Origin: Microcaldota archaeon
GTDB lineage: Archaea; Micrarchaeota; Micrarchaeia; Micrarchaeales; CABMGC01
Reading direction: 5' to 3'
Assembly (NCBI GenBank): GCA_021803425.1
Contig: JAJZLN010000014.1
Span: 1-46,743 of the forward strand
DNA: 46,743 nucleotides
The notes below the pieces were generated by a model. It was not told where the DNA came from and did not search any database. It worked only from the letters and a program-made list of their open reading frames with translations. The translations under genes were made by a program, and so were the position numbers. Within the stretch, counting starts at the first letter, position 1, and each line of letters opens with the position of its first letter. This document shows, piece after piece, positions 11,948 to 19,530 of the stretch.

Positions 11948-13249
11948 ATGCGAATTGGGCATATTGCGCTGTTCATAATTATAATGCTATTTTCAGGCGC
12001 AGCTCTGCTTTCTGCGCAATCTCAGCCAGCCGTCAACATTGCACAACGTCCATCCTCAAGCATACCTCCAGAGTGCAGTCCAAGCAGCATTGGAAACATA
12101 ATGTCAAATTCCGGATCCGCGATCGGCATTGCGCTCCTGGCTTTAACAGTATCATTTGATGTTGTCGCAATCGCATACATGATAAACAAGCTATTCCCTT
12201 CGTCGGGAGTCGGTAACTGGATACAGAATGAATACTGGGAGATAGCAAAATCCGCGATAATAATTGTGTCAATTTTTGCTATAATAACGCTAGTTGGCAA
12301 CCTTACATATGCCATTGTGCCAACAGCATTCTCATCTACTTCACAGGTCTCCGGGTTCACTGATATCACTCCGTTGATAAACGGCGCAGAAAATTATCTA
12401 TGCACGGTCAATGCCAATACCTATAATGTGTGGGAGCTTATGGGCATAATGTCTGCAGGTACGGGTTTTTGGTCAACTTTTCAGGTAAGTGCATATGATC
12501 CTTTTTCTTCAATAGCTTCCGTAATACTCTCAGCCGGCTATTTAGCGTTTTTTTACGGCGCCAACATAATGCCATTCAGTAACTGGATGCTTCAGTCAGG
12601 CAACTTCATGATTGCGCCATTCGGATCTATAATAAACGACTTCATCAATTTCGTAATGTTCCCATTCACCTCTTTCAACCTCGGCCTTATAACGCTTCTT
12701 CCGTCTTTGGCTACAATAGGCTTGATGTTTCTTATACCTATGGGGCTTGTATTCCGCGCCCTTCCTTTCATAAGGGGGATAGGCGGCACGCTTATAGCAC
12801 TAGGCATAGGATTATGTATAATCCTGCCAAGCGTCCTTCTACTGTTCAATTATCCTATCACAAATGCGCTAACATCAGCAATCCCGTTAGTCTATTCCAA
12901 TCCAAATAATAATCTACCTTCATATTCCTGCCCGTTTAGTAGCGTTTCCGGAACTTTTGGATTTATACTTAAATTTGGATGTATACTTTTTCCAGCTACC
13001 TATTTAGTTTCTATTTTGCCACTAGGTAGCAACTATGTAGGACAGATTGGTTTTTCATCTGCAGTATTCAATACGAACGCCATTTTTTACTATATGAATT
13101 ATATTGTAAACTACGGTGCATATGTCATAGTGCAGCTTCTGCTGCTCGTTATGGACATAATAATAATATATCCGTTGGTAAATGAGACTGCGAAGATGAT
13201 GGGTGGAACAATAAGGCTTCAGATCGGTGGCAAGCTTAGGCTGGCATGA
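11948..13249 (+). CDS. VirB6/TrbL/CedA-like polytopic membrane protein, paralogue 1
   Basis: Signal peptide; motif A IALLALTVSFDVVAIAYMINKLFPS...NEYWEIAKSAIIIVSIFAI; motif B LVFRALPFIRGIGGTLIALGIGLCIILPSVLLL. Confidence 0.75.
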   Translation: MRIGHIALFIIIMLFSGAALLSAQSQPAVNIAQRPSSSIPPECSPSSIGNIMSNSGSAIGIALLALTVSFDVVAIAYMINKLFPSSGVGNWIQNEYWEIAKSAIIIVSIFAIITLVGNLTYAIVPTAFSSTSQVSGFTDITPLINGAENYLCTVNANTYNVWELMGIMSAGTGFWSTFQVSAYDPFSSIASVILSAGYLAFFYGANIMPFSNWMLQSGNFMIAPFGSIINDFINFVMFPFTSFNLGLITLLPSLATIGLMFLIPMGLVFRALPFIRGIGGTLIALGIGLCIILPSVLLLFNYPITNALTSAIPLVYSNPNNNLPSYSCPFSSVSGTFGFILKFGCILFPATYLVSILPLGSNYVGQIGFSSAVFNTNAIFYYMNYIVNYGAYVIVQLLLLVMDIIIIYPLVNETAKMMGGTIRLQIGGKLRLA

Positions 13250-14475
13250 TACTTATGTTACCTATTTTACTATCAACTAATGCATATGGCGGAAGCACGT
13301 GCATATTCGGAGGCACGCCAACAGCTTCAGGCAGTCTGAACACGAACAACTGGATACAGATAAACCTTATAGTAGTTCTGATGTCCTTCACAATAGCCGG
13401 GCTTGTATATTCTCTTTCCAATCTATTTCCTACCTCAATGAGGGAAAAGCTAAAAGGTGCAGCTAAGGTTGAGTCATTCCAGGGCATGATAAGCATAGGT
13501 ATAATACTTGCCCTTATAGCTCTTTCTTCAGTTTCGTGCAATATCGGTAATTCCATAGCAGCGCAGTCTTCGTCGCTCACAAACATAGCCTATCAGTCGC
13601 CAATGCAGTTCTCTACCTCTTATGTAAACTACCTCATGTTTGACAGAGGGCTTTCGCTGTTTTCAGACATATATGCAGAAACAATAAAGCTTGTAATATC
13701 CGGCAACATAGCAGACAGCCTTCAAGAGCAGTTGCATTCACTTGTCATAACGCCTCTTCTTGGGGAGGGGATTGGAATCGGGCAGGACATATATGGCGTA
13801 TTTTTCGGATTCAGCGGCGCGCTTACCGGTGCATTTGTTCCGCTAATAATTGTAACTTTCGGCATAATTTTTACAATATTCCTTATATTATCCATGTCAA
13901 ATTCGCTAGCGCTTACTGTGGTGGTTCCTATTTCAATAATACTCCGATCCATACCGTTTGCAGGCCCAAAGCTGCGGGAGTCGGCAGACACTATCCTTGC
14001 ATTGGCAATAGGGTTTTACTTCATATTGCCGCTTGCAATAATAATGAATTCGTATATTACTGCATGGATTTTCACGCCCTGTGCAGCAAATACGCTAATA
14101 TGCAATCCCTACGCGTATTATAATGCGCCATATTCGTTGCAGCAGCTTCCTATAAGTAACATATTCAATTCCAATCCGCAATCTCTTTCCGGAGGCGGAC
14201 CTTTGTCAAGTTTCGGGCTTTCATCAGCATTTCTTAGCAGCGGATTTGCCGGATCAGGCATATTGGGCGGTTTTGAGATACTGCTTCAGACCCTTGTGAA
14301 TTTCCCCTCGGTAATAATAAACTATTCGCAGCAGACTGCTCAATATATCTTTGAAGGAATAGTGCTTATGGGATTAGATCTTGCAATAACCCTTGCTTTT
14401 GCACAGGGATTAACTAAAGCTCTTGGATCCGCAAGCAGGATCGTTGGAGTAGGGCCTTTCTGGGGGAATGTATGA
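13246..14475 (+). CDS. VirB6/TrbL/CedA-like polytopic membrane protein, paralogue 2
   Basis: Motif A NLIVVLMSFTIAGLVYSLSNLFPTSMREKLKGAAKVESFQGMISIGIIL; diverged motif B ILRSIPFAGPKLRESADTILALAIGFYFILPLAI. Confidence 0.73.
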   Translation: MILMLPILLSTNAYGGSTCIFGGTPTASGSLNTNNWIQINLIVVLMSFTIAGLVYSLSNLFPTSMREKLKGAAKVESFQGMISIGIILALIALSSVSCNIGNSIAAQSSSLTNIAYQSPMQFSTSYVNYLMFDRGLSLFSDIYAETIKLVISGNIADSLQEQLHSLVITPLLGEGIGIGQDIYGVFFGFSGALTGAFVPLIIVTFGIIFTIFLILSMSNSLALTVVVPISIILRSIPFAGPKLRESADTILALAIGFYFILPLAIIMNSYITAWIFTPCAANTLICNPYAYYNAPYSLQQLPISNIFNSNPQSLSGGGPLSSFGLSSAFLSSGFAGSGILGGFEILLQTLVNFPSVIINYSQQTAQYIFEGIVLMGLDLAITLAFAQGLTKALGSASRIVGVGPFWGNV

Positions 14476-18398: not shown

Positions 18399-18402
18399 TG
18401 TT

Positions 18403-19530
18403 ATGATGAAATACAAACTTCTAATATTTGCATTTATTGCTTCAATAATAGTTGCAAGCATAAATTCTCAGGCTACGCCTTCATACTGTTCCCAGGGTAC
18501 TACACAAGTCCCTGGCGGTATAGTCTACCAGTATGCGCAATGGTATTGCGTCAAAGGCGGAATAAATGATACTATAGTCAGCGAGTGGAGCGCATGGCTT
18601 CCTGTTGCAATTCTTGCAGTTTCTCTTGCATACGCTATAGCGACCATAATATTCATGTTCGGGGTAGCGCTAAAGAACGACCGTTTAAGGACATTTGGCA
18701 TAGGTGAGATGTACGAAGCCACCGCATCAGCCGTAATCGTAATATTCTTCTTATTCATTGCAGGCGTGCTGTTCGGCCTTCTTCCATCAGTAGTTACGGG
18801 TCAGATAGACCCATATACCACAGCGCTGAACTACATATCCGGAACAATTGCAACTTCATATTCTACTGCTGCAACTCTTTTTAATGTCGCAGTGATAGAT
18901 AAAATGTATACTACATTTACAATAAATGGAGATGCAGGCGGAGTTGGTCCTGCAGGTCAATTTATTACTAATGCAGTGCCTGCAATATCCTCGCTGCTGA
19001 CTGCTCCTATAACCTACCTTTTCTTCTGGCCTGCCTTTACCATAGTTGCATTCATGTTTGAAGCGGTAATCTCTCTTTCAGTCCAGTTCTATCTTTTGGT
19101 ATTCTTCATGCAGGCTGCAGTACCCGTATTTCTCATACCCGGAGTCATATTCAGGGCCTTCATACCCACCCGGCACCTTGGCGGCATGATGATGGCCATT
19201 GCTATAGGTTTTTATTTCATAATGCCTCTGCTATTCTCCATAGCTTATTATTATACATCTTCAAGCGTGATAACCCAGCTAAATCTTGTGCAGTCCGAGC
19301 TGAATCAGTATGGTACTACTGGAACTGGATCTGTCAATGCAGCAGCTACAGCCTCATCTCCTCTTGATGCCACACTTAGTCAGATGCAGAGCACATTCGG
19401 CCCGTTCTGGCTTTCAATATTATTTTTCCCAGCGCTGATAATAGCACTTACATACACATTGATAACGCAGATAGCGGAGCTGCTAGGGGGAATGGCAAAA
19501 ACTTCCGGAAGGCTCAGGTCCCTAGTTTAG
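18403..19530 (+). CDS. VirB6/TrbL/CedA-like polytopic membrane protein, paralogue 6
   Basis: Motif A VAILAVSLAYAIATIIFMFGVALKNDRLRTFGIGEMYEATASAVIVIFF; motif B VIFRAFIPTRHLGGMMMAIAIGFYFIMPLLFSI. Confidence 0.75.
   Translation: MMKYKLLIFAFIASIIVASINSQATPSYCSQGTTQVPGGIVYQYAQWYCVKGGINDTIVSEWSAWLPVAILAVSLAYAIATIIFMFGVALKNDRLRTFGIGEMYEATASAVIVIFFLFIAGVLFGLLPSVVTGQIDPYTTALNYISGTIATSYSTAATLFNVAVIDKMYTTFTINGDAGGVGPAGQFITNAVPAISSLLTAPITYLFFWPAFTIVAFMFEAVISLSVQFYLLVFFMQAAVPVFLIPGVIFRAFIPTRHLGGMMMAIAIGFYFIMPLLFSIAYYYTSSSVITQLNLVQSELNQYGTTGTGSVNAAATASSPLDATLSQMQSTFGPFWLSILFFPALIIALTYTLITQIAELLGGMAKTSGRLRSLV

What the first reader, a model, noticed from the sequence alone, without database searches (positions are those of the whole stretch)
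11948..19530. Six tandem VirB6-like paralogues sharing two motifs
The six consecutive products (433, 409, 551, 389, 365, 375 aa) share a signal-like N-terminus, motif A (TM-Y-x-hydrophobic-N/G loop-acidic-TM) and motif B, roughly h-h-R-[AS]-h-[PG]-x-T-[RK]-x2-G-G-x3-A-x-hydrophobic-P (diverged in paralogue 2). Bacterial T4SS usually have one VirB6, which forms a homo-oligomeric platform at the base of the pilus. Inference: six diverged copies could assemble a hetero-oligomeric platform with subunit specialisation.
Basis: partly seen in the sequence, partly recalled or inferred. Interest (0 to 1): 0.86.

Follow-up and report, generated by a model that had tools for sequence, protein, structure and literature searches.

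The report
Six-part secretion platform in tiny archaea
A small symbiotic archaeon (Micrarchaeota) carries a type IV secretion-like machine in which the usual single membrane-platform protein is replaced by a fixed row of six different relatives, kept at exactly six across the phylum, which suggests a ring built from six specialised parts.

Summary
Six consecutive genes (V1-V6, 11948-19530 +) of a Micrarchaeota genome are true paralogues: all 15 profile-profile comparisons give 97-99.7% probability, while 30 comparisons with neighbouring families and all reversed controls fail. They lie in a conserved chromosomal operon with a VirB2-like pilin (8805-9191), two paralogous proteins resembling a VirB3 hairpin plus the VirB4 N-terminal domain, and a VirB4/CedD-type ATPase. 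No relaxase was found. This is a domesticated T4SS-like machine. Two further facts emerged. The number six is invariant: 63 of 63 complete arrays examined, in 11 families and including duplicated arrays, hold exactly six, and gene order matches paralogue identity. Most related genomes, this one included, also carry a minimal sister operon with one pilin, one V, one N and one ATPase. Best explanation: a single-copy VirB6/CedA-like subunit was duplicated into an obligate six-part hetero-oligomeric platform. Direct VirB6 homology was not shown by sequence or fold; weak CedE/CedA hits, the pilin-like hairpin and the context support it. The ring and its stoichiometry are inferred. Rickettsiales (4-5 VirB6 paralogues) and CedA/CedE are precedents.

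The parts
8805..9191 (+). VirB2/CedA1-like pilin, 128 aa (signal peptide, TM-loop-TM)
   Evidence: Pfam TrbC/VirB2 weak here (E 5.7e-4); orthologue L067 passes the cut-off (E 9.7e-8); family profile's best PDB hit is TrwL, the R388 pilus (E 0.0026); present in 59 of 61 genomes
9250..11106 (+). GP618, multi-TM protein between pilin and array; associated but probably not core
   Evidence: found upstream of the array mainly in f1 loci at 23-36% identity
11147..11884 (+). TM245, conserved multi-TM protein directly upstream of V1
   Evidence: 35-73% identity in order, also in family f11 loci L187, L188; not homologous to V1-V6
11948..13249 (+). V1, VirB6/CedA-like paralogue, array position 1 (433 aa)
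   Evidence: hhalign to V2-V6 98.8-99.7%
13246..14475 (+). V2, array position 2 (409 aa); motif B diverged; N-terminal hairpin homologous to the pilin
   Evidence: hhalign 97-99%; pilin vs V2 92%, E 6e-7; position 2 monophyletic over 20 arrays
14472..16127 (+). V3, array position 3 (551 aa; much longer in some lineages)
   Evidence: hhalign 97-99%
16135..17304 (+). V4, array position 4 (389 aa)
   Evidence: hhalign 98-99.6%
17301..18398 (+). V5, array position 5 (365 aa)
   Evidence: hhalign 97-99%; position 5 monophyletic
18403..19530 (+). V6, array position 6 (375 aa)
   Evidence: hhalign 97.8-99.7%; AF2 model pLDDT 85; position 6 monophyletic, support 0.995
19626..21737 (+). M703, N-terminal TM(s) plus long charged cytoplasmic part, lineage-restricted accessory
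   Evidence: no homology to V1-V6; at this place detected only in same-genus loci
21840..22682 (+). N280, TM-TM plus soluble domain, paralogue of N273
   Evidence: hhalign N280-N273 97.8%
22690..23511 (+). N273, VirB3-like hairpin plus VirB4 N-terminal-domain-like fold
   Evidence: AF2 pLDDT 81; Foldseek ranks 2-5 are R388 inner-membrane-complex chains 8rtb/8rtd, prob 0.90-0.97
23518..25029 (+). VB4, VirB4/TraC/CedD-type HerA-clade ATPase (503 aa)
   Evidence: Pfam DUF87, AAA_10, P-loop_TraG; NCBIfam best hits CedD, TraC, CedB
25032..25328 (+). S98, small helical protein resembling the VB4 C-terminal domain
   Evidence: VB4 profile positions ~406-500 hit a ~100-aa ORF directly downstream of VB4 in G082, G064, G076
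25321..25695 (+). S124, Zn-finger-like N-terminus plus two TMs; conserved operon member
   Evidence: 33-55% identity in order-wide loci
25721..26509 (+). S262, coiled coil plus winged helix; conserved also beside the minimal operon
26681..29110 (+). S809, membrane-anchored protein with extracytoplasmic part; conserved operon end
   Evidence: 22-49% identity in order-wide loci, E 1e-28 to 1e-54 in other families

Best explanation
The operon encodes a chromosomal, domesticated type IV secretion-like pilus and translocation machine of Micrarchaeota. A VirB2/CedA1-type pilin is handled by a VirB4/CedD-type ATPase (probably a hexamer) that is held to the membrane by N280/N273, which look like a VirB3 hairpin plus a split-off VirB4 N-terminal domain. 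The platform between ATPase and pilus, one protein in most T4SS, is made of six diverged VirB6/CedA-like paralogues, each needed once or in fixed proportion. They arose from a single-copy subunit like the one still present in the sister operon (pilin-V-N-VB4). Shown here: homology of the six, invariance of six, positional orthology, the single-copy sister system, the pilin, and the ATPase family. Inferred: that V1-V6 occupy the VirB6 place, that all six sit in one complex, ring geometry, stoichiometry, and function (contact with, or uptake from, a host or neighbour cell, possibly Ced-like DNA import).
For: Paralogy of all six with clean controls. Exactly six in 33 of 33 complete arrays of the order and in 30 of 30 further arrays, including duplicated A and B arrays; the two apparent sevenths are a pilin and a split position 3. 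Order matches identity: permutation z 11.8, 0 of 5000; profile matrix A vs V diagonal ranks 1 of 720, A vs B 1 of 720 with every row and column best on the diagonal. Tree: positions 2, 5, 6 monophyletic over 20 arrays; single-copy Vs form one separate clade, support 0.98. Minimal sister operon in 26 of 26 fetched loci, one in this genome. Pilin, ATPase, N273 fold. V N-terminal hairpin homologous to the pilin, as reported for CedA/CedA1 and VirB6/VirB2 (PMC9905601). CedE (E 2.5e-4) and CedA (E 0.15) models among weak NCBIfam hits of V proteins. Overlapping start and stop codons favour equimolar synthesis.
Against: No V protein of the window hits the TrbL/VirB6 Pfam model, and TrbL is not among the families shown for 89 relatives at E 10; hhalign to TrwI- and PrgH-type VirB6 is not significant, although the known pair TrwI-PrgH also gives only 17.7% in this test. 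Foldseek of V6: no hit at E <= 0.001; R388 VirB6 chains only at ranks 40 and 47 with TM about 0.3. The single-copy Vs show no CedA/CedE/TrbL hit. The R388 VirB6 platform is a pentamer, not a hexamer (PMC9259494). In several families the arrays are unlinked to the VirB4 gene. Position 4 is not monophyletic, and V1, V3, V4 of the window's order do not group with their counterparts in the tree. No complex was modelled or measured.
Confidence: 0.6

Rival explanations
1. The six are separate VirB6/CedA-like channels. Each forms its own homo-oligomer, and they are used alternately or for different substrates with a shared ATPase and pilin.
For: The six are as far apart as 14-21% identity between profiles. 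Genomes with two arrays and one main ATPase show that platforms and ATPase need not be one to one. Long insertions occur in some positions only.
Against: Independent channels would be lost and gained one at a time. Instead the count is six in 63 of 63 arrays and duplication is by whole array. Order and tight overlap are kept.
Confidence: 0.2
2. Hetero-oligomer, but not one of each in a six-fold ring: for example a pentameric ring of five types plus one accessory subunit, or a larger ring with some subunits repeated. (A sub-case of the best explanation, not exclusive of it.)
For: Bacterial VirB6 is pentameric (PMC9259494). Rickettsia keeps five VirB6 paralogues (PMC2653234). V2 lacks the canonical motif B and could be the odd one.
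Against: All six are kept in all arrays. V2 is one of the positions supported as monophyletic, so it is not a decaying copy.
Confidence: 0.25
3. Not a VirB6 homologue. The six form an unrelated membrane complex that shares an operon with T4SS-like genes.
For: No significant VirB6 match by profile or fold.
Against: Single-copy relatives sit between pilin and VirB4 in 26 of 26 minimal operons, the place expected of VirB6/CedA. The hairpin matches the pilin. CedE and CedA models are among the weak hits. TrwI's conserved QPTHRF threonine aligns in register with motif B in 5 of 19 profiles.
Confidence: 0.12
4. A conjugation system of a mobile element rather than a chromosomal cell function.
For: Component families are those of conjugation.
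Against: Present in 57 of 61 genomes at 59-80% identity with conserved gene order. No relaxase in 41 genomes. TraG-D_C matches are weak and fall in HerA-like proteins. Neighbours in the window are housekeeping genes (top6B; CDC48-like and aIF2-gamma-like by sequence).
Confidence: 0.03

Closest known systems
Ced system of Sulfolobales (CedA, CedE, CedA1, CedA2, CedB, CedD) and Ted of Thermoproteales
   Same: Chromosomal archaeal T4SS-like set of pilin, multi-TM platform and VirB4/HerA-clade ATPase; no relaxase; platform N-terminus resembles the pilin; VirB4 functions split over paralogues; two platform paralogues CedA/CedE proposed to hetero-oligomerise (PMC9905601, PMC11868833).
   Different: One or two platform proteins instead of a fixed six. 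Here the ATPase lacks its N-terminal domain, and TM-bearing N proteins appear to supply it. Different phylum, constant six-gene array, and a single-copy sister operon in the same genome.
Rickettsiales vir homologue (rvh) T4SS with tandem VirB6 paralogues
   Same: Several strongly diverged VirB6 genes in tandem, co-transcribed with virB3-virB4, vertically inherited in obligate symbionts (4 in Anaplasma, 5 in Rickettsia; PMC7648143, PMC2653234).
   Different: Four or five copies, variable between lineages, with TrbL domain detectable. Here six, invariant, and no TrbL match.
R388/pKM101-type conjugative T4SS
   Same: VirB2 pilin, VirB3-VirB4, VirB6 platform order of parts; N273 fold resembles R388 VirB4-containing chains.
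   Different: Homopentameric VirB6, full outer-membrane parts, relaxase and coupling protein, plasmid-borne (PMC9259494).
Patescibacteria (CPR) T4SS
   Same: Reduced T4SS in tiny episymbionts, usually no relaxase, essential for epibiotic growth in one species (PMC12102498).
   Different: Bacterial MPF-FATA type; no tandem VirB6 array reported.

Membership tests
T4SS / VirB-type machines | VirB4-family ATPase | tested here: met
   Pfam AAA_10, P-loop_TraG, DUF87 over cut-off; NCBIfam CedD, TraC, CedB, VirB4 matched below curated equivalog cut-offs
T4SS / VirB-type machines | VirB2-type pilin in the same locus | tested here: met
   TrbC/VirB2 over cut-off in orthologue L067, weak in the window protein; profile hits TrwL pilus in PDB
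T4SS / VirB-type machines | VirB3 and VirB4 N-terminal domain | tested here: inconclusive
   N273 model matches R388 inner-membrane chains, prob 0.97 but E 0.12; no sequence match
T4SS / VirB-type machines | relaxase and coupling protein (conjugative systems only) | tested here: not met
   relaxase PF03432 0 of 41 genomes (one relaxase family tested); TraG-D_C only weak HerA-like matches
VirB6/TrbL (PF04610) | match to the TrbL profile | tested here: not met
   none for V1-V6 nor among families shown for 89 family members; 0 in own genome
VirB6/TrbL (PF04610) | profile-profile homology to TrwI- or PrgH-type VirB6 | tested here: inconclusive
   not significant, but the positive control TrwI-PrgH gives only 17.7%; 5 of 19 profiles align motif B in register
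VirB6/TrbL (PF04610) | VirB6 fold | tested here: inconclusive
   AF2 V6 pLDDT 85; Foldseek lists R388 VirB6 at ranks 40 and 47, TM 0.22-0.36, not significant
VirB6/TrbL (PF04610) | polytopic membrane protein encoded with pilin and VirB4 | tested here: met
   5-9 predicted TMs; pilin-V-N-VB4 order in 26 of 26 minimal loci
CedA/CedE (Ced system) | match to CedA or CedE model | tested here: inconclusive
   CedE E 2.5e-4 and CedA E 0.15, one member each of 89; none in 30 single-copy members
CedA/CedE (Ced system) | N-terminal hairpin homologous to the system's pilin | tested here: met
   pilin vs V2 92% E 6e-7, V4 74% E 3e-5; other profiles below 22%
CedA/CedE (Ced system) | DNA import activity, DNA-damage induction | not testable with these tools
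   needs experiment or transcriptome

The most novel reading that the evidence does not exclude
The platform is a one-of-each hetero-hexamer in fixed order, matched to the six-fold ATPase. It evolved from a homo-oligomer that still exists as a separate machine in the same cell, much as MCM2-7 evolved from a homohexamer. It would remove the five-to-six symmetry mismatch seen in bacterial T4SS and has been kept without change of number across a phylum.
Probability: 0.38. Interest if true: 0.9.

Novelty: new variant of a known kind. Interest (0 to 1): 0.74.

Why it matters
It would be, as far as the papers searched show, the largest and only number-invariant set of VirB6-like paralogues, in a phylum where no T4SS has been described. 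A single-copy and a six-copy version of one machine in the same small genome make it possible to ask how a homo-oligomeric secretion platform becomes hetero-oligomeric, and what symmetry the platform has. It also names a candidate contact or uptake machine in host-dependent archaea, including the co-cultured Micrarchaeum harzensis (locus L138), in which the operon's role has not been studied.

Tried and rejected
TrbL search of the own genome: nothing. Single-sequence Pfam of V1-V6: nothing. PDB sequence search with V profiles: only chance ZorA hits. Foldseek of V6: not significant. hhalign to bacterial VirB6: not significant and low power. M703 as a seventh V: rejected, below 3%. Candidate seventh Vs: resolved as pilins (L037, L041, L059-L062, L067, L068, L188), a split position 3 (L193), an opposite-strand 95-aa V6 fragment (L050) and an antisense ORF (L041). 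Phage search with V6: no match. Search for V relatives outside Micrarchaeota with the mixed profile A7: only Micrarchaeota named; word-based, so not exhaustive. Conserved linkage to the Tad-like genes at 3255-8614: only seen in same-genus loci (L231, L232, L241), so treated as neighbour, not part. IQ-TREE run timed out; FastTree used instead. The whole-library profile search was not run because it returns no organism names.
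Full report
What is there. The window is contig C6 of a 0.88 Mb archaeal genome (93% complete). Its closest named relatives are Candidatus Micrarchaeota, and the complete Candidatus Micrarchaeum A_DKE genome (L138) holds the same ATPase region. Six ORFs at 11948-19530 match the finding in place and length. Pfam finds nothing significant in them.

Are the six related? Orthologues of each were taken from 40 stretches of relatives, aligned separately, and compared by hhalign. All 15 pairs give 97.1-99.7% probability (E 7e-11 to 5e-25) over 214-398 columns at 14-21% identity. 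Thirty comparisons of the six with five other families of the same operon give under 4%, and reversed profiles at most 16%. So they are real paralogues. The same test shows that N280 and N273 are paralogues of each other (97.8%).

How constant is the array? In the window's order the layout TM245-V1..V6-N280-N273-VB4-S98-S124-S262-S809 is conserved over two families and many genera. 32 complete loci plus the window have exactly six V genes. A V6 profile finds relatives in 255 of 296 genomes of the phylum. Stretches from nine further families, plus duplicated or displaced arrays in the window's order, gave 30 arrays, all of six. Two apparent exceptions are a neighbouring pilin ORF (L188) and a position 3 that is split into two ORFs (L193). 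Many genomes outside the order hold two such arrays, away from the VirB4 gene.

Does position mean identity? Scores of 25 distant arrays against V1-V6 models favour the same position (z 11.8, 0 of 5000 permutations). Profile matrices put the diagonal at rank 1 of 720 for A arrays against V1-V6, rank 4 for B arrays, and rank 1 for A against B with all rows and columns best on the diagonal. A and B were sorted by hand from length and neighbours. In a tree of 137 sequences, positions 2, 5 and 6 are each one clade over 20 arrays (support 0.92, 0.94, 0.995). Positions 1 and 3 are clades among arrays outside the window's order only, and position 4 is not resolved. The six were therefore already different before the phylum diversified, at least for positions 2, 5 and 6, and probably for all.

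Is there a single-copy version? Yes. Profile hits led to a compact operon pilin-V-N-VB4 with one of each, in this genome (contig C19) and in all 26 stretches fetched. In a few of these the N gene is present by position and size but below the profile threshold. A single-copy V profile finds a strong copy in most of 61 genomes. Single-copy Vs, also from other families, form one clade apart from all array members (17 of 17, support 0.98).

Is it a T4SS? The ATPase is of the VirB4/TraC/CedD clade. N273 has two TMs and an alpha/beta domain; its model (pLDDT 81) matches R388 VirB4-containing chains with probability 0.97 but E 0.12. Relaxase was not found in 41 genomes. The set resembles Ced and Ted (PMC9905601, PMC11868833) more than conjugation plasmids.

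Are V1-V6 VirB6? Direct tests are negative or without power: no TrbL hit, no significant hhalign match, with a positive control that also fails, no significant fold match. Indirect support: the place of the single-copy V between pilin and VirB4; the N-terminal hairpin homologous to the pilin (V2 92%, V4 74%), as reported for CedA/CedA1 and VirB6/VirB2 (PMC9905601); CedE (E 2.5e-4), CedA (E 0.15) and a pilin-like conjugal protein (E 0.0026) among 46 weakly matching NCBIfam models; and motif B aligning in register with the conserved P-x7-[FW]-x2-T segment of TrwI in 5 of 19 profiles, which are not independent. I therefore say it works like VirB6/CedA and leave membership open.

Mechanism. In R388 a homopentameric VirB6 stands over a hexamer of VirB4 dimers and receives pilins (PMC9259494). 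By analogy V1-V6 form the platform here. A constant set of six, in constant order, with overlapping genes, duplicated only as a set, is what an obligate hetero-oligomer would leave behind. Six matches the expected six-fold ATPase, and five in Rickettsia would match a pentamer, but that is suggestion only. Two N paralogues beside one VB4 may likewise form a hetero-pair, as CedB/CedD are thought to complete one VirB4 N-terminal domain (PMC11868833). What passes through is unknown: DNA import as in Ced, or exchange with a host cell.

Novelty. Tandem VirB6 paralogues are known in Rickettsiales and a CedA/CedE hetero-oligomer has been proposed. I found no paper on a T4SS of Micrarchaeota; preprints and most subscription papers are not in that library. 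The invariant six and the coexisting single-copy machine appear new.

Limits. Genomes are mostly MAGs. Genes were called as first start to stop. The fetched stretches were chosen for contig length. hhalign probabilities come from pairwise use without a background library. No oligomer was modelled.

Noticed in passing
G000 contig C19: V 13290-14300, pilin 14368-14661, VB4-like about 11456-12568 (all - strand); locus L251: Minimal sister operon pilin-V-N-VB4 (one of each) in the window's own genome; the same order in 25 other fetched genomes.
   Followed up: yes
L181-L213 (families f3-f9, f16, f22): Genomes outside the order carry two six-gene arrays. One type (B) has very long position 3 proteins (up to 1409 aa) and is usually followed on the same strand by a giant 800-1900 aa protein; the other (A) often has a giant protein on the opposite strand upstream.
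   Followed up: partly
G055:C8:19038-20195 (frame of 633 aa); several further hits in G055 and G060: Four pilin-like domains in tandem inside one reading frame, plus many extra pilin copies nearby: possible poly-pilin proteins in one genus (g30).
   Followed up: no
window 25032-25328; G082:C1:45238-45522, G064:C5:40014-40256: The small gene after VB4 resembles the C-terminal domain of VB4 itself: a separate copy of that domain.
   Followed up: partly
window 3255-8614 (-): Tad/type IV pilus-like genes (T2SSE ATPase, T2SSF membrane proteins, coiled-coil protein) lie next to the T4SS-like operon in same-genus genomes (L231, L232, L241) but were not found upstream in other genera or families.
   Followed up: partly
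window 41608-46584: Carboxynorspermidine decarboxylase (nspC, over cut-off) and a carboxynorspermidine synthase-like gene beside aspartokinase and aspartate-semialdehyde dehydrogenase: a likely polyamine pathway in a reduced DPANN genome.
   Followed up: partly
families f10, f13, f15 and part of f17 (G075, G086, G089, G096): No V array found in these near-complete genomes; G099 (f17) has only a single-copy V with VB4. Loss or great divergence within the phylum.
   Followed up: no
L050:9770-10057 (+): A 95-aa fragment matching the V6 C-terminus on the strand opposite to the array, near V6: remnant of a partial inverted duplication.
   Followed up: no
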